Made by a program: the position numbers and the translations under genes
Source of the DNA: a virus
Reading direction: 5' to 3' (one strand)
DNA length: 46,092 nt
Virus record (IMG/VR): IMGVR_UViG_3300042731_004752
Location: 1 to 46,092 of that record
Part shown: piece after piece, positions 2,828-14,944 of the stretch
Layout of the letters: the number at the start of each line of letters is the position of its first letter
Numbering within the stretch: the stretch's first letter is position 1
Notes under the pieces: generated by a model
Seen by the model: the letters and a program-made list of their open reading frames with translations, nothing else
The model's database searches: none
What the model was told of the DNA's origin: nothing

Positions 2828-2890
2828 ACCGTGACTCTAATACGTGGGGTCAACAAGGCGCAAGCGAGAGAGAGGTAGGTGGAAAGACCC

Positions 2891-3008
2891 CGGAAGTAGT
2901 TCCGAAAGTGTTTCCGAAAGTGTTTCCGGAAGAATCCCGGAAGTGTTTCCGGAAGTAGTTCCGAAAGTGTTTCCGAAAGTGTTTCCGGAAGAATCCCGGA
3001 AGTGTTTC
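2891..3008. repeat. Two perfect tandem copies of a 59-bp repeat
   Basis: Copy 1 is 2891-2949 and copy 2 is 2950-3008, with no differences seen. Each copy is built of shorter degenerate units such as TTCCGAAAGTG, and includes the palindrome TTCCGGAA. The period is not a multiple of three, so coding use is unlikely. The position, immediately upstream of the terminase genes, suits a packaging recognition site or an operator of the late operon. Confidence 0.9.
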
Positions 3009-3046
3009 CAGCCCAAGCGGGAGGGGCGTCTACGTCCGAGGTTTCG

Positions 3047-3192
3047 AAAAGCAACCGTTACCTCCTAAGTAACCGAGACGATTGCGTTTTAGCGGAAGGG
3101 TGACGGTTGGTGACGGTTGGTGACGGTTGGAAAAAGCAACCGTCACCCCTTAAGTTACCGAGACGATTGCGTTTTAGCGGAAGGGTGACGGT
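3047..3192. repeat. Direct repeat pair of about 60 bp with iterons between
   Basis: The segment from about 3047 to 3107 recurs with few changes at about 3131-3192. Both copies contain CCGAGACGATTGCGTTTTAG followed by CGGAAGGGTGACGGT. Between them lie three exact tandem copies of the 10-mer TGACGGTTGG (3101-3110, 3111-3120, 3121-3130). The repeats form the left side of the candidate origin. Confidence 0.85.
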
Positions 3193-3399
3193 ATGACGGT
3201 TGGATCGCCATAATCTATATATCTCTTCTCCCCTATTTTTTCTTTTTCTCCTTCTTCTTTTCCATACTTTCTATATATTCCTTCTTTTCCATCTCTCTTC
3301 TCTCAATTTTCTTTTTTATAAAAAGAAAGAGATCAACCGTCATACCGTCACCCTTCCGCTATAAAACAATGATTACCGCGATTTAAGGGGTGACGGTTG
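3137..3399. repeat. Large interrupted palindrome around a pyrimidine-rich core (origin candidate)
   Basis: The 27 bases at 3176-3202 are the exact reverse complement of 3334-3360. The symmetry extends outward imperfectly to about 3137 and 3399, where both sides end in the iteron CAACCGTCACC or its complement. The enclosed core (about 3205-3330) is AT-rich and its plus strand is almost all pyrimidine between about 3221 and 3305. Such a core could melt easily and could form triplex (H-DNA). The layout of iteron arms and an unwinding element matches theta-type origins. Confidence 0.75.
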
Positions 3400-3642
3400 C
3401 AAAACCCAACCGTCACCCAACCGTCACCACCGTCACCCTTTTACACAAAACAACTGTAACTTTACAAAACATTGGTAAGCACTTAAAAAGTACGTCAAGT
3501 ATTCCATGTTTTCCATTTCGTCGATCCACTTTGTAAGATGGTTGTACTGCCTACAAAACATCTGTAATCGCGATAGAAAAATACCGTGTATTTGTGCAAA
3601 AAGGTGACGGTGGTGACGGTTGGGTTTTGCAACCATCACCCG
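3387..3642. repeat. Second inverted repeat pair, each arm itself a hairpin
   Basis: The 29 bases at 3389-3417 are the reverse complement of 3612-3640 with one mismatch. The similarity extends toward the interior to about 3447 and 3598, interrupted by one extra iteron unit of about 11 bp in the left copy. Each arm is also a hairpin, with TGACGGTTG facing CAACCGTCA. The 150-bp interior has three copies of a TACAAAACA-n-TGTAA-like motif (3441-3460, 3462-3478, 3552-3568), with a weaker fourth at about 3359-3375 in the left arm. Confidence 0.75.
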
Positions 3643-3645
3643 TTT

Positions 3646-5943
3646 TTAATACTCATCTATTTTATTTTCGTGGTGGGTTATCCCGGTAATTAACATCACT
3701 CGAGATTTTTTTGTGCGGATTTTTTCGACTTCGATGTCGTAGTCTTTTAGATGGGGTTCGAGGCGCTGCAGCGCCGCAGACACCCCCCGCGCCGACTTGT
3801 AAGCGCGTCTCTCATCGGGGTCGAGCAGATCAAGCAGATCGCTTGCGGTCCCTTCCCACGGTTTATTGATGCGCATGAGCGCCCGGGCAAGGGGGTTGTC
3901 TGACATATGCTCGTCAACTATTTTTTGTTTGTTGTCTGCGACCGCGTCGAACAGTTCCGTTGGCTCTAGCCCCAGCACCGCCCCGCCCGCGGCCGCGTAC
4001 TCCAACCAGTCGAGCAACCGATGCACGCGTGGAACATCGACCACACCGCCCCGTAGCGCCGCAGGCGTGGCGTCCAGCAGCGCGGCTCGTATCAACGCCG
4101 CCGTCCGCTTGACGTCGGTCTCTAGCGTCGATTCTTTTTTCTGTTGGGCGCCGGGCAGCGTGGCAACGTCCAGCGCGATAGACCGATTAAGCAAGTCTTC
4201 CCGCGAGACAGGTTGCACAATCGATGTGACGATCACACGGGAACGGAGCTTGACGCGCCTCATATCGCCGTCGGTGTATAATCGCCTAGCCTCCACTTCC
4301 CCCCCCGTGATGACCTGACAAAGCAAATCTTGAGCTTCCACGGGGATGCGTGAGACGTTGTCAAACACCGTCACCCCTTCCCGCCCGAACATATTTGTCA
4401 ACGTTCTGGCGTCATCGGTAAACGTCCTCAGTTGTGCGTCGATGTCGTCGGCGCCACTGGGGTCGAGTATCAACTTGAGCGTGGCGGCGAGCACAGACTT
4501 ACCACTCCCTTGCGCTCCGGACAGTACGAGCAACGGCACCCGCACCCGCGGATTAAGCGCCGACAGCGCCCAAGCCAGACATATACAGATCGATCCGTGG
4601 GTGAGGTTTGGAAACAGATTACTCATGAGTTCGACCGCGGTTTGGAAGTCTAGATCGGCGGCCGGGGTCACCCCCTGCGGCGGCCGGAAATAAATTCTGC
4701 TCTTGGCCAGTTCTGCAGCTGACCGGTGTTCTCTCCCCGCTGTGCTCAATACTGCCACGTCCTCCCCGCCAGAGTGGTAGTATACATTGCCGTTGACCGC
4801 GCCAAAGCGACCGAATACGGGCGCCTGCGGGTTCTGCGCCGCTTCAATCGATAGATTTTTAATCGCGTCGGACATTTGGTTCGTGGGCACTGGCCGATCT
4901 GGATGCGCACGGAGCCAACGCCCACCTAACCAATTCTCTGTCTCTCTACAGCCCGTCAGCTCGTACGTCGCGTGAGTCTCGTCGTCGTATAGATAGCTTG
5001 TATCGCCGGACGGAAATAGTGTTGTACCGAGTCTGGCCAGCTCGATCAATTGGTGTACAAGTGTTCCGTCCGCTTTTTCCCCGAGGGCATCTAGGGGCTT
5101 CGCCGCACCGTCTCGGGCGCTGTCGGCATATGTCGTCTCTATCTCGTCGGAGCCCAATCCGGTCTCATTGATAGCGTCTACCAGTCGATCACGCACGCAA
5201 TCAATCGATAGTCCTGCAGGCGCCGCAAACCCAGCCAGTTCTAGCACCGCGTCTCGCCACTTGTCCCGGCGCTCTCCTTCTTGGATTTTTGGTAGTTGCT
5301 CTAGCCAGTACGTCAATCGCTCGTAGTACCGACATGCGCTCGTCTGCGCCTTTTTACTACTCGCCAGCAGTCGCAGCACGGGCCGCGGGCAGATCGGCAG
5401 ATCGGCAGATCGGACAAGAGGCTTAGTCCAGTAGTAGCACCCCCCGCCGTCGACAGGCCCCGATGGCGCAACGGCAACAAGGATCTTTTTTAGATCGCCG
5501 TCGTCCCGTACCCCGCCCGCCTTGACGTCGACGTTGGGTACGAGCTTGACTTTTTGCCGTACCGTGAGCCCCGGGGGCGACCTAAACCAATCCCTTATTC
5601 CGCCTCCCGCTGATACGTCCGACGGACAATCTGTAGGGATGCTCAGTCCAAAAATCCCATAAAATAGCTCGCGTCGCTTTTTTACAGTCTCCAGCTTTTT
5701 GGCCTGATCGGTCCCGGGCAGATCGTGGGCGTCGAAATCGAGCACGACCGCACCATCGGGGAGCCAAACCCCTAACCAAGCTTTCGTCGTGGTGCTGAAC
5801 AGCTTGATCGCTTCTTGTGGATCCGACGCCGCCGCAGCCTCGAACGTCGCCGCTGCCGGCCGTTTTTTGGCGTTGATCCGCATCGGCCGATAGCCCAGCA
5901 TAGCAAGCTCATGAGCGGCCGCGGCCAACCGCTTATTTGTCAT
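3646..5943 (-). CDS. Primase-polymerase / superfamily 3-type helicase
   Basis: This 765-residue replication protein has an N-terminal archaeo-eukaryotic primase-like (prim-pol) region, with the catalytic-type motif VVLDFDAHD at residues 66-74. Its C-terminal half is a helicase ATPase, with Walker A GAQGSGKS near residues 475-482, Walker B VTVFDNV near 524 and a downstream arginine-bearing segment. The expected prim-pol GG-x-H-x-x-F motif reads GGIRDWF (114-120), with arginine in place of histidine. It is translated with the upstream HTH gene (11-bp overlap) and ends beside the candidate origin. Its likely roles are origin opening, priming and unwinding. The fold assignment comes from motifs only. 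Confidence 0.88.
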   Translation of the reverse strand: MTNKRLAAAAHELAMLGYRPMRINAKKRPAAATFEAAAASDPQEAIKLFSTTTKAWLGVWLPDGAVVLDFDAHDLPGTDQAKKLETVKKRRELFYGIFGLSIPTDCPSDVSAGGGIRDWFRSPPGLTVRQKVKLVPNVDVKAGGVRDDGDLKKILVAVAPSGPVDGGGCYYWTKPLVRSADLPICPRPVLRLLASSKKAQTSACRYYERLTYWLEQLPKIQEGERRDKWRDAVLELAGFAAPAGLSIDCVRDRLVDAINETGLGSDEIETTYADSARDGAAKPLDALGEKADGTLVHQLIELARLGTTLFPSGDTSYLYDDETHATYELTGCRETENWLGGRWLRAHPDRPVPTNQMSDAIKNLSIEAAQNPQAPVFGRFGAVNGNVYYHSGGEDVAVLSTAGREHRSAAELAKSRIYFRPPQGVTPAADLDFQTAVELMSNLFPNLTHGSICICLAWALSALNPRVRVPLLVLSGAQGSGKSVLAATLKLILDPSGADDIDAQLRTFTDDARTLTNMFGREGVTVFDNVSRIPVEAQDLLCQVITGGEVEARRLYTDGDMRRVKLRSRVIVTSIVQPVSREDLLNRSIALDVATLPGAQQKKESTLETDVKRTAALIRAALLDATPAALRGGVVDVPRVHRLLDWLEYAAAGGAVLGLEPTELFDAVADNKQKIVDEHMSDNPLARALMRINKPWEGTASDLLDLLDPDERRAYKSARGVSAALQRLEPHLKDYDIEVEKIRTKKSRVMLITGITHHENKIDEY

Positions 5944-6148
5944 CGCCCACCCCCTGCAGTACGAGCACCCCTCGTTCCGCCATGGCGCGCAGTACGTCGG
6001 TGCGGGGCCATTGCAGGGGCCGCCCGGGGGAGCGGACGGGCTTCATTCTGTGTGGCCCCCCGCCACAGCTCGACCACACGTGCAGAGTGGACACCGCGAC
6101 CCCGAGGAGTGCGGATACTTGATCGGTAGAGTAATAAACCTCGTTCAT
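5933..6148 (-). CDS. Small helix-turn-helix DNA-binding protein (MerR/AlpA-like)
   Basis: This 71-residue protein starts at an ATG preceded by GGAGGT six bases upstream. The pattern YYSTDQVSALLGVAVSTLHVWSS (residues 5-27) is a winged-helix/MerR-type helix-turn-helix, and the GRPLQW segment near residue 43 resembles the wing. Such proteins include excisionases and small regulators. No integrase is present, so excision is unlikely. It is the first gene of the minus-strand primase operon and faces the early operon across a 204-bp divergent promoter region, so a regulatory or replication-initiator role is plausible. Confidence 0.75.
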   Translation of the reverse strand: MNEVYYSTDQVSALLGVAVSTLHVWSSCGGGPHRMKPVRSPGRPLQWPRTDVLRAMAERGVLVLQGVGDDK

Positions 6149-7667: not shown

Positions 7668-7930
7668 TCAAAAAATACGCAATATACAACGGGATGTGTG
7701 TCGATGTCATGGTCCCCGAATGGGCGGAGTGGATCGCAAAAGACGAGAATCATCAGATCTGGGTGCACGTGGGGAAACCAATCAAGAAAAACTGTTATCT
7801 CGGCGTCCGTGAGTTTGTAAGCGACAGGATGTACTTTGTACGTAATCACCGATTCAAATCTGACCCAGCTCCGCTTCTTGAAACACCGTGGGACAAATCG
7901 CTTCGGCGGTTGTACAAAGTAGAGGAGTAG
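7664..7930 (+). CDS. Hypothetical early protein, 88 residues
   Basis: Starts in an ATGA overlap with the previous stop. The protein is a soluble, tryptophan- and tyrosine-rich small domain with alternating hydrophobic strands (KKYAIYNGMCVDVMVPEWAEW at the start). No catalytic motif or family was recognised. Translational coupling suggests it works with, or is simply co-expressed with, its neighbour. Confidence 0.65.
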   Translation: MIKKYAIYNGMCVDVMVPEWAEWIAKDENHQIWVHVGKPIKKNCYLGVREFVSDRMYFVRNHRFKSDPAPLLETPWDKSLRRLYKVEE

Positions 7931-7935
7931 ACGAG

Positions 7936-8424
7936 ATGAAACACGGAGTGATCAAGCTCACCGTCAAGCCGTGCTCAATACGGGCCGCCGTAAAGTGGAA
8001 TGAACGAGTCCATCGAAAGCTCAAGAGGATACAGGGTGGAATGTGGGCCATTCAGGTGTGTGCTGACGGTGAGATGGTTGGAGTTGCCATCGTTGGCAAC
8101 CCGGCGAGGTCATGGCAAGGCACTGGCGTGCTTTCCATTTTGAGGGTTGCCGTTCTAGAGGGTCACCGGAACGCTTGCTCAAAACTGTACGGGGCTTGCT
8201 CGCGAGCTGCGCGTGCTATGGGGGCCACCGACCTTGTGACGTACACCCACGAAGACGAACCAGGGACGTCCTTGCGAGCAGCTGGGTTTGTTTTTGGCGG
8301 AATGACAAACGGAGGTGAATGGGGTAGGCGAGATAGACCAAGACAGAAACAATTATACCCAGAACCAAAAAAGCGTTGGTTTGCGCCATGGGGCGAGCGA
8401 GCCAAAACGAGGTGGCCGAGATGA
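7936..8424 (+). CDS. GNAT-like N-acyltransferase of the XF1762 type
   Basis: The ATG at 7936 is preceded by GAGGAG; an in-frame upstream start at 7888 lies inside the previous gene and has no ribosome site. The 162-residue protein carries the pattern of the phage XF1762 family: VGVAIVGNPARSW, an HRNACSKLYGACSRAARAMG helix and a YTHEDEPGTSLRAAGF segment. These are the acetyl-CoA-binding strand, helix and C-terminal motifs of a GNAT fold as I recall the family. The substrate is unknown. It may modify a host or phage protein or nucleobase early in infection. The stop overlaps the next start. Confidence 0.75.
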   Translation: MKHGVIKLTVKPCSIRAAVKWNERVHRKLKRIQGGMWAIQVCADGEMVGVAIVGNPARSWQGTGVLSILRVAVLEGHRNACSKLYGACSRAARAMGATDLVTYTHEDEPGTSLRAAGFVFGGMTNGGEWGRRDRPRQKQLYPEPKKRWFAPWGERAKTRWPR

Positions 8425-12660: not shown

Positions 12661-12869
12661 GAGACCTCGACACGATGCGGCGAGAATGGAGTGGTGGTAT
12701 GACCGGGGTTGTACCTACGAAGCCTGGATACTATTGGGTGTTCGTCCAGGAATGGCGTATGACGGAAGTTATAATCCGTGGTGGCCGATTAATAAGTAAA
12801 GCGTTCCCGGGTGACGAGGGTATGTTAGTTTCCCGAATATGCCCAGATAGATGGGGGTCCGAGTTTTGA
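12654..12869 (+). CDS. Hypothetical protein with PTKPG module, 71 residues
   Basis: A 71-residue frame containing GVVPTKPGYYWVFVQEW, the same short beta module as the paralogues at 8421 and 8767. The start is ATG at 12654, but the internal ATG at 12699 (MTGVVPTKPG) would begin closer to the module. It overlaps the polymerase gene by 19 bp. The role is unknown. Confidence 0.6.
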   Translation: MLRDLDTMRREWSGGMTGVVPTKPGYYWVFVQEWRMTEVIIRGGRLISKAFPGDEGMLVSRICPDRWGSEF

Positions 12870-14944
12870 CCCGGATAGCGCACATAGATTTTGAAACGCG
12901 GTCACACGCGCTACTGTCCCCCGCTAAGGTGTCGGTCGGGTCCTACAACTACAGCCTACACCCTACCACTCAATTACTTTGTGCGTGTTACGCGCTGGAC
13001 GATCTGCCCATACAACGGTTCGAACCATGGCGCAACGCTGACGGCGTTTTTGATGCGACTTGCGCGGCCACGTTCCGGCGCGCCCACATCTTACACAAAG
13101 AACGGTTCGCGTGTCCGGTCGATCTGCGGGAAGCGGTGCTAAGCGGCGCGCTGATATACGCTCATAATGCGATGTTCGAGCGGTTGATCTGGACGCACAT
13201 CTTGACGCCTTACTACGGGTGGCCAGCGGTGCGACCAGAGCAGTGGGTGTGCACGATGGCAATCGCACGCTACAACGGGCTACCCGGCGGATTGGGCGAC
13301 ACAGCCAAAGCACTTGACATCGATCTGCAAAAGAGTGACTCAAGCGCGATGAAAAAAATGTGTAAACCCCGCGCGACTTGGCTGAACAAAGGGCGCGGTA
13401 ATCCGTGGTTCGCCGACGACGATCTCTATAGAGAGCTGGTTGACTATTGCGTGATTGATGTCGAAGTGGAGCGCGCCATCGCTAAAAAGTGCCGACCGTT
13501 GCCACCGAAGGAGCGAAAGATATGGTTACTCGATCAAGAGATCAATCTTCGCGGTGTGCCGGTTGATCGGCCCTTGGTTGATGCGGCATGCGTCGAAGCC
13601 GACGCAATCTATGATGATGCAGGTAAAGAGCTTGCGACACTGACAAAGGGTGCGGCCGACCGGCCGACACAAAAGCAGCGGATCAAAGAGTGGCTACAGC
13701 GCCGAATGATTATCGAAGATATGCAAGCGGCGACGATAGAGCATGCGTTGACTAGACACCGAAACGAAAACCATCTGGACGACGACACAGTACGAGTACT
13801 GGAAATATGCCAGCTGGCAGGTGGTAACGCGTTGGCGAAGTACAAAGCGATACAGCGCTACGCAAACAACGGTCGCATCTATGACGCCTATCGTTATTAC
13901 GCTGGCCATACGGGGCGGGGTGGCGGACAAGGCGTACAAATGCAGAACCTCATACGCCCGCCGTTGAAACTCGAAATCGCCGAACAGTATATCCCATATT
14001 TGCTTGGGCATGAGATCTATCTAGGCGCTTTCTGTGACGGGCAACCCGTCAAGCCAGTACTGGATAGCTTAGTAAGGGCGTCGATATGCGCGCCCCCGGG
14101 CAAAACGTTGGTAGCGCTTGATTTCTCGAGCGTCGAAGCGCGGGGCGTCAACTGGGTGTCCGGCCAATGGGACGTGGTCGAACTGTTTGAAAAAGAAGAT
14201 GCTTTGAAAGCGGCAGGCAGATCGACGGAAGGCATGGGCGTCTACGAAAACATGGCGGGCAAGATTTTCGGGATGGACCCGATAGCAGTTAAAAAAGATA
14301 GTTTTGAAAGATTTTTTGGAAAAACTGTAGAACTCGGGAGCGGCTATGGTATGGGCCCCCCAAGGCTACAGGATAGCGCGCATGAAAGGGGTGTTGAAAT
14401 TGAATTGAGATTGGCGGAACGCGCCGTCAAAGCGTACCGCCGATCACACCGACGGGTAAGAGCGTATTGGTACGAGGTTGACGAAAAGGTGAAGCGCTGT
14501 ATCCGCACCGGAAAGAGCCTACAAATTGGGCGGAACGTTACTTGTCGTATGGGTGAGGTCGGGAACGTCGCTTGCTTAGCTATCGTGCTGCCGTCCGGGC
14601 GTAGTCTGTTCTACCCGCGGATACGAGTTGAATCCGACCGGATCAAATACTGGGGACGGCGGTTGAATGGTAGCTTAGGTTTTGTCGGCACCTGGGGCGG
14701 CGCGTTGGTAGAGAACATCGTGCAAGCGTTTTGTCGGGATCTGTTGATGGGCGCAATGTTGCGTATCAGTGAGCGTTACGAAATCATCATGCATACCCAC
14801 GACGAAGTGTGCTGCCTCGTCGACGAAGCGGACGCCCAAGCGGCATATGGTTGGATCGCCGACGTATTGACCGCGGTACCTTTGTGGGCAACGGGCATGC
14901 CCCTTGCGGTGGAAGGCTGGATCGGGCAGCGTGGGCGCAAGTGA
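12851..14944 (+). CDS. DNA polymerase, family A, with 3'-5' exonuclease domain
   Basis: This 697-residue replicative polymerase has exonuclease motif I at HIDFETRS (Asp13, Glu15) and an inner exonuclease region to about residue 210. The polymerase domain has motif A VALDFSSVEARG (Asp424), motif B-like KDSFERFFGKTVELGSGYG near 480-500, and motif C THDEV (His650, Asp651, Glu652). The length is normal for phage family A enzymes without a 5' nuclease domain. The start at 12851 overlaps the upstream gene. A TTG at 12866, overlapping that gene's stop, is an alternative and keeps the exonuclease motif. Confidence 0.95.
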   Translation: MGVRVLTRIAHIDFETRSHALLSPAKVSVGSYNYSLHPTTQLLCACYALDDLPIQRFEPWRNADGVFDATCAATFRRAHILHKERFACPVDLREAVLSGALIYAHNAMFERLIWTHILTPYYGWPAVRPEQWVCTMAIARYNGLPGGLGDTAKALDIDLQKSDSSAMKKMCKPRATWLNKGRGNPWFADDDLYRELVDYCVIDVEVERAIAKKCRPLPPKERKIWLLDQEINLRGVPVDRPLVDAACVEADAIYDDAGKELATLTKGAADRPTQKQRIKEWLQRRMIIEDMQAATIEHALTRHRNENHLDDDTVRVLEICQLAGGNALAKYKAIQRYANNGRIYDAYRYYAGHTGRGGGQGVQMQNLIRPPLKLEIAEQYIPYLLGHEIYLGAFCDGQPVKPVLDSLVRASICAPPGKTLVALDFSSVEARGVNWVSGQWDVVELFEKEDALKAAGRSTEGMGVYENMAGKIFGMDPIAVKKDSFERFFGKTVELGSGYGMGPPRLQDSAHERGVEIELRLAERAVKAYRRSHRRVRAYWYEVDEKVKRCIRTGKSLQIGRNVTCRMGEVGNVACLAIVLPSGRSLFYPRIRVESDRIKYWGRRLNGSLGFVGTWGGALVENIVQAFCRDLLMGAMLRISERYEIIMHTHDEVCCLVDEADAQAAYGWIADVLTAVPLWATGMPLAVEGWIGQRGRK

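What the first reader, a model, noticed from the sequence alone, without database searches (positions are those of the whole stretch)
3137..3399. Nested palindromic, iteron-lined pyrimidine core: candidate phage replication origin
A gene-free region next to the primase-helicase gene has 27-bp exact inverted arms (3176-3202 against 3334-3360) with weaker symmetry out to about 3137 and 3399. Each arm carries TGACGGT-type iterons in mirror orientation. Between them is a core of about 125 bp that is AT-rich and almost pure pyrimidine on one strand. This combination of symmetry, iterons and a melting or triplex-prone core is origin-like. I do not recognise the iteron sequence from a described phage.
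Basis: partly seen in the sequence, partly recalled or inferred. Interest (0 to 1): 0.75.

Follow-up and report, generated by a model that had tools for sequence, protein, structure and literature searches.

The report
Phage replication origin beside its helicase
A 600-base stretch of this phage genome very probably is where its DNA copying starts: short repeated docking sites for the neighbouring primase-helicase point from both sides at an easily melted centre, a layout I also found next to related helicases on plasmids and in other phages.

Summary
Exact inverted arms of 28 bp (3175-3202 / 3334-3361) are the longest inverted repeat in the circular 46-kb phage record (shuffles reach 12-14). 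14 of the genome's 21 TGACGGT copies lie in 3090-3650, and the enclosed 131-bp core is the genome's least stable, most AT-rich and most pyrimidine-rich 125-bp segment. The element sits directly 3' of a Prim-Pol/AAA+ helicase gene whose predicted fold best matches the SaPI5 primase-helicase.

Distant relatives of this helicase (Streptomyces-type plasmids including pFP11, other viral contigs, bacterial genomes) also carry iteron arrays directly 3' of the gene. Most share a [T/G]GACG core, and the nearest iterons read that core towards the AT-rich segment on 23 of 26 flanks. Published work on SaPI, SCCmec, pRN1 and pWTY27 places a bound or required origin next to such genes.

Best explanation (0.86): a bidirectional theta-type origin, in which two helicase assemblies load on facing iteron pairs and melt the core. 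Triplex formation is unsupported and GC skew is uninformative. This is a new member of a known kind. The same iteron and layout recur beside VapE-type helicases, the most interesting lead, but weakly tested.

The parts
3040..3124 (+). outer left module; tandem copy (85-bp offset, 90% over 68 bp) of the left-arm module, with a degenerate leftward iteron at 3051-3063
3099..3129 (+). three iterons GGTGACGGTTG at 10-bp spacing, reading towards the core
3119..3147 (.). iteron and inverted iteron around a 7-nt loop; strong potential hairpin (DNA fold -12.8 kcal/mol, z -5.2)
3175..3202 (+). left exact inverted arm (3176-3202 reads AGCGGAAGGGTGACGGTATGACGGTTG); holds the inner tandem iteron pair (TGACGGT at 3186 and 3194, 8 bp apart) facing the core
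3203..3333 (.). AT-rich, pyrimidine-strand core: contains the least stable, most AT-rich and most pyrimidine-rich 125-bp windows of the genome; proposed DNA unwinding element
3334..3361 (-). right exact inverted arm with the mirror-image inner tandem iteron pair (ACCGTCA at 3336 and 3344) facing the core
3389..3418 (.). right hairpin-forming inverted iteron pair (DNA fold -14.4 kcal/mol, z -5.3), mirror of 3119-3147
3407..3437 (-). outer right iterons (3407, 3418, 3429), mirror of 3099-3129
3438..3602 (.). second AT-rich segment with TACAAAACA-type repeats and two weak DnaA-box-like sites (3439 +, 3593 -); role unknown
3603..3641 (+). distal iterons (3603, 3612) and a degenerate inverted iteron
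3646..5943 (-). primase-helicase, 765 aa: N-terminal Prim-Pol, AAA+/D5-type helicase (Walker A about 471-484), C-terminal winged-helix-like domain 684-753; proposed iteron-binding initiator
5933..6148 (-). small HTH_17 gene overlapping the primase-helicase start; same HTH, Prim-Pol, helicase, iteron order as some actinobacterial plasmids

Best explanation
The segment at about 3040-3641 is the phage's replication origin, acting in cis for the primase-helicase encoded immediately beside it. Proposed steps: (1) the C-terminal winged-helix-like domain of the protein binds TGACGGT iterons; (2) the tandem pairs that face the core from both sides position two helicase assemblies in opposite directions; (3) the AT-rich core, the least stable segment of the genome, melts; (4) the two helicases load on opposite strands, the Prim-Pol domain primes, and the phage's own polymerase (12851-14944) extends both forks, giving bidirectional theta-type replication. 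Shown here: the anatomy, the enzyme's fold class, and the conserved position and orientation next to related helicases. Inferred: binding, melting and bidirectional priming.
For: Anatomy: longest inverted repeat, iteron cluster and melting minimum of the genome coincide. Neighbour: Prim-Pol E 4e-8; AF2 model with 37 sequences best matches SaPI5 primase-helicase 7ola, E 1.3e-8, then AsfvPrimPol, NrS-1 and the D5/E5 helicases; C-terminal elements H-E-H-H-H-E-E at 684-753 fit a winged helix. Relatives: significant repeat arrays at or within 0.9 kb 3' of the helicase gene's end in 23 of 137 loci, covering 8 of 17 sequence clusters; 5' of the gene only 2 clusters. Six of 8 clusters share GACG in the iteron (shuffled consensus mean 0.77, maximum 4 in 5000). 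Layout in gene orientation: window ..47>8>142<8<47..; Actinacidiphila plasmid ..67>8>75<8<67..; pFP11 48>8>74<8<; viral contig L037 >9>140<9<. The nearest iterons face the AT core on 23 of 26 flanks. L127, a 40-kb contig carrying a TerL, has TGACGGTCA iterons 3' of its fused Prim-Pol/helicase. Literature: SaPI and SCCmec origins lie directly 3' of the helicase gene and the Cch2 C-terminal domain binds the origin (PMC7581432); pRN1 needs a structure 3' of orf904 (PMC4234260); pWTY27 RepA footprints a 105-bp inverted repeat of iterons, with a Prim-Pol partner (PMC3583192).
Against: No experiment on this phage. Helicase identity to relatives is only about 18-31%. The large marine 490-aa helicase clade lacks 3' iterons and some members have repeats 5' of the gene. 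Cumulative GC skew turns near 6 kb, not 3.3 kb, although skew follows gene direction. Seeds and regions for the orientation test were chosen after looking at the arrays; only the AT core was picked automatically. That the pFP11 iterons in L090 are exactly the published Rep-bound ones could not be read, because the paper is not held.
Confidence: 0.86

Rival explanations
1. Packaging site (pac/cos): the repeats are binding sites for the small terminase, and the region lies just upstream of the terminase genes.
For: TerL at 990-2555 and a possible TerS at 2531-2827 are close by. A separate array of 12-bp repeats (2888-3010) sits between the TerS-like gene and the element.
Against: The same iteron core and facing layout occur beside the helicase genes of plasmids that package nothing. 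The element adjoins the helicase gene; the 2888-3010 array is the better pac candidate.
Confidence: 0.05
2. Transcriptional operator: iterons are sites for the small HTH protein (5933-6148) or another regulator, controlling the early operon.
For: A HTH gene overlaps the primase gene; replication operons often have a repressor (Orf56 of pRN1, PMC4234260).
Against: The element lies 3' of the operon, with one weak promoter-like match, no more than shuffled sequence gives. In relatives the neighbouring regulator varies (GntR, HTH) while helicase and iterons stay together.
Confidence: 0.05
3. Host-initiator origin: DnaA boxes in the right half recruit host DnaA, and the phage iterons are accessory.
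For: Two of the three TTWTNCACA matches in the genome are at 3439 and 3593.
Against: No strict box; both are weak T-variant matches outside the inner arms. The phage encodes its own Prim-Pol/helicase, polymerase, exonuclease and ssDNA-binding protein.
Confidence: 0.03

Closest known systems
SaPI (SaPI5) Rep/ori and SCCmec Cch2/ori
   Same: Initiator helicase with a DNA-binding C-terminal domain; iterons directly 3' of its gene (PMC7581432); SaPI5 is the best fold match in the PDB.
   Different: Different iteron (AAGTG for Cch2); no detectable single-sequence match to PDB chains; here a full-size phage with its own polymerase.
Streptomyces theta plasmids pFP11 / pWTY27 (Prim-Pol + RepA-type ATPase + iterons)
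   Same: pFP11 ATPase is a sequence relative (E 6e-8); GACG iterons 3' of the gene; inner pair 8 bp apart facing an AT-rich core, with a 48-bp outer gap. pWTY27 RepA binds a long inverted repeat of iterons (PMC3583192).
   Different: Prim-Pol and helicase are separate genes there; iteron is AGGGACGCAC in pFP11, not GGTGACGGTTG; its inner pairs are 74 bp apart, not 142; pWTY27 itself was not aligned here.
pRN1 orf56-orf904 and its downstream origin
   Same: HTH gene, then fused Prim-Pol/helicase/winged helix, then a required inverted-repeat element 3' of the gene (PMC4234260).
   Different: pRN1 has one stem-loop and no iterons.
Phage P4 alpha protein and ori
   Same: Fused primase-helicase with a winged helix that binds origin repeats (as described in PMC4234260).
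   Different: P4 has a Toprim-type primase; sequence relation was not tested here.
VapE-like helicase phages with TGACGGT arrays (L270/L271, L234, L251)
   Same: TGACGGT iterons 1-3 bp 3' of the helicase gene, facing pairs 6-10 bp apart around an AT core of 62-82%.
   Different: Helicase family PF05272 with only a P-loop match to this one.

Membership tests
Iteron origin of a self-loading (primase-)helicase | helicase gene of the D5/SF3-like AAA+ class in cis | tested here: met
   AF2 model matches 7ola, NrS-1 CTR, D5/E5, AsfvPrimPol
Iteron origin of a self-loading (primase-)helicase | multiple short iterons directly next to (3' of) the helicase gene | tested here: met
Iteron origin of a self-loading (primase-)helicase | AT-rich unwinding element flanked by iterons | tested here: met
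Iteron origin of a self-loading (primase-)helicase | initiator binds the iterons | not testable with these tools
   needs EMSA or footprinting
Iteron origin of a self-loading (primase-)helicase | element supports replication in cis | not testable with these tools
   needs plasmid assay or marker frequency
pFP11-type Prim-Pol/ATPase replicon | helicase sequence relationship | tested here: met
   tblastn E 6e-8 for pFP11; shared motifs
pFP11-type Prim-Pol/ATPase replicon | GACG iteron core and inward tandem pairs 8-9 bp apart | tested here: met
pFP11-type Prim-Pol/ATPase replicon | Prim-Pol and helicase as separate genes | tested here: not met
   fused in one 765-aa frame; L127 also fused
pRN1-type origin | single stem-loop, no iterons | tested here: not met
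   iterons and several hairpins present
pac/cos packaging site | recognised and cut by terminase | not testable with these tools
   needs virion end mapping

The most novel reading that the evidence does not exclude
There is a common grammar for origins of phage and plasmid self-loading helicases: a tandem pair of [T/G]GACG iterons 8-10 bp apart on each side, reading towards an AT-rich core, placed directly 3' of the helicase gene. It and even the same heptamer TGACGGT are shared between helicase families with no detectable sequence relation beyond the P-loop (Prim-Pol/D5-type and VapE-type), so an origin could be found, and its initiator and direction predicted, from sequence alone.
Probability: 0.35. 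Interest if true: 0.65.

Novelty: new member of a known kind. Interest (0 to 1): 0.48.

Why it matters
To my knowledge experimentally mapped origins are few for tailed phages with Prim-Pol/helicases. This one is compact, sits beside its likely initiator, and makes sharp predictions (iteron, facing pairs, melting core, bidirectional forks). The orientation rule, seen in plasmids and phages of different hosts, gives a simple way to find such origins in unannotated viral genomes and a testable model of how two opposing helicase rings are set in place.

Tried and rejected
Close relatives by primase, polymerase or DNA in IMG/VR, phage and plasmid collections: none; the low-score DNA hits look like simple-sequence or chance matches. 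Single-sequence AF2 model: useless (pLDDT 37). Sequence search of PDB: no hit for the single protein; the profile hits shown are mostly ABC-transporter P-loops. GC skew as an origin test: rejected as confounded by gene direction. Triplex reading: no evidence for it beyond composition; dropped. TerL-related loci were not pursued.

Full report
WHAT WAS CHECKED. The window is a whole virus record whose first and last 69 bases are identical, so it is probably a complete circular (or circularly permuted) genome. The reported element is real and larger than stated. Exact inverted arms of 28 bp (3175-3202, 3334-3361) are the longest inverted repeat in the genome; eight second-order Markov versions of the genome gave 12-14. 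Five of the six exact inverted repeats of 16 bp or more lie here. Imperfect symmetry runs 3096-3440, a tandem copy of the left module begins at 3040 (85-bp offset, 90% over 68 bp) and distal iterons reach 3641. Of 21 TGACGGT heptamers in the genome 14 lie in 3090-3650 (0.26 expected if uniform). The 131-bp core contains the least stable, most AT-rich and most pyrimidine-rich 125-bp windows of the genome. 'Almost pure pyrimidine' is too strong: the core is 76% pyrimidine, with one run of 42 broken by a single purine.

THE NEIGHBOUR. The gene 3646-5943 (-) ends 5 bp from the element. Its 765-aa product has a Prim-Pol domain (Pfam E 4e-8), a Walker A motif near residue 476 and a C-terminal domain with a W.GTASDLL motif and following helices and strands that are conserved in relatives. 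A model built with 36 viral relatives (mean pLDDT 66, about 85-94 over most of the helicase) matches the SaPI5 primase-helicase best (7ola, E 1.3e-8), then AsfvPrimPol, NrS-1 and the D5/E5 helicases. A HTH_17 gene overlaps its start. The phage also carries a DNA polymerase, an exonuclease and a ssDNA-binding/annealing protein.

RELATIVES. No close relative was found in IMG/VR or in the phage and plasmid collections. The helicase half has distant relatives on plasmids, in viral contigs and in bacterial genomes. In 23 of 137 loci, from 8 of 17 sequence clusters, a repeat array beyond shuffled expectation lies in the interval from 250 bp before to 900 bp after the helicase stop; upstream arrays occur in 2 clusters, mainly one marine clade. 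The iterons differ in length and flanks but six of the eight clusters have GACG in the consensus (mean 0.77 and at most 4 in 5000 shuffles): GGTGACGGTTG here, GGTGACGCAG/C and GGGGGACGCAG in Streptomyces-type plasmids, AGGGACGCAC in pFP11, TGCGGACGATC in viral contig L037; L127 has TGACGGTCA. L127 is a 40-kb contig with a terminase large subunit (E 6.8e-93), so at least one other phage-like record has the same heptamer in the same place, although it is only 28% identical in the helicase and 25% in TerL.

LAYOUT. Written in gene orientation with > for the strand reading GACG, the central part of the window is >9>11>18<47>8>142<8<47>18<10<10<; an Actinacidiphila plasmid is >19>11>12>67>8>75<8<67<12<11<19<; pFP11 has 48>8>74<8<; L095 48>8>95<8<; L037 >9>140<9<. 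When the AT-richest iteron-free 50-mer is taken as the core by rule, the nearest iterons read towards it on 23 of 26 flanks in 17 loci; the exceptions are L103, with few scattered copies, and one distant single iteron in L091. Iteron seeds and regions were set by me after inspection, so this is a strong description, not a blind test.

A WIDER LEAD. Several have dense mixed-strand TGACGGT arrays: L270/L271, L234 and L251 start 1-3 bp from the 3' end of a VapE-like helicase gene and show facing pairs around AT cores; L252 and L238 lie near AAA_25 genes. A shuffled heptamer gave one array that dense in 120 loci, also 3' of an AAA_25 gene. Profile comparison found only a P-loop match between the VapE proteins and this helicase family. 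The recurrence of the heptamer across families is therefore suggestive, not established.

MECHANISM. Published systems supply the missing steps. SaPI Rep recognises iterons directly 3' of its gene with its C-terminal domain, and SCCmec Cch2 binds its downstream repeats and is a helicase that needs them (PMC7581432). pRN1 needs a 100-bp stem-loop 3' of its HTH/Prim-Pol-helicase operon (PMC4234260). pWTY27 RepA, partnered with a Prim-Pol, footprints a 105-bp inverted repeat of iterons, and its authors infer bidirectional replication (PMC3583192). By analogy the iterons here bind the primase-helicase, the facing inner pairs set two assemblies head to head, the core melts and two forks leave. Binding, melting and direction are inferred.

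ALTERNATIVES. A packaging site is possible because the terminase genes are close, but plasmid relatives share the layout and a separate 12-bp repeat array (2888-3010) lies nearer the TerS-like gene. An operator is unlikely 3' of the operon without a convincing promoter. DnaA involvement is possible but weak: two of three TTWTNCACA matches in the genome lie at 3439 and 3593. GC skew turns near 6 kb but four-fold-site skew mostly follows gene direction, so it does not decide.

VERDICT. It is a new member of a known kind, with a clear anatomy. The orientation rule and shared heptamer are the parts a specialist would want to test.

Noticed in passing
window 2888-3010: Array of about ten 11-12-bp repeats (TTCCGGAAGTGT type), itself a 59-bp duplication, between the TerS-like gene 2531-2827 and the origin; candidate packaging site.
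   Followed up: partly
window 7888-8424 (+): Mom-like DNA modification protein (phrog_1384, E 2.9e-24): the phage may modify its bases.
   Followed up: no
window 3439-3447 and 3593-3601: Two weak DnaA-box-like sites in inverted orientation inside a second AT-rich segment with TACAAAACA-type repeats.
   Followed up: partly
L046-L048, L077, L078, L142, L143, L152: Marine viral clade with a 490-aa helicase has GCCGAGAC repeats within 1.2 kb 5' of the helicase gene instead of 3' iterons.
   Followed up: no
L016:812-1003: Archaeal plasmid pH6Ac has a tandem 11-bp array (AAGTTCGAGCA) 5' of its helicase gene.
   Followed up: no
L270:4247-4601, L234:6517-6692, L251:3111-3282: Origin-like TGACGGT arrays with facing pairs and AT cores directly 3' of VapE-like helicase genes.
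   Followed up: partly
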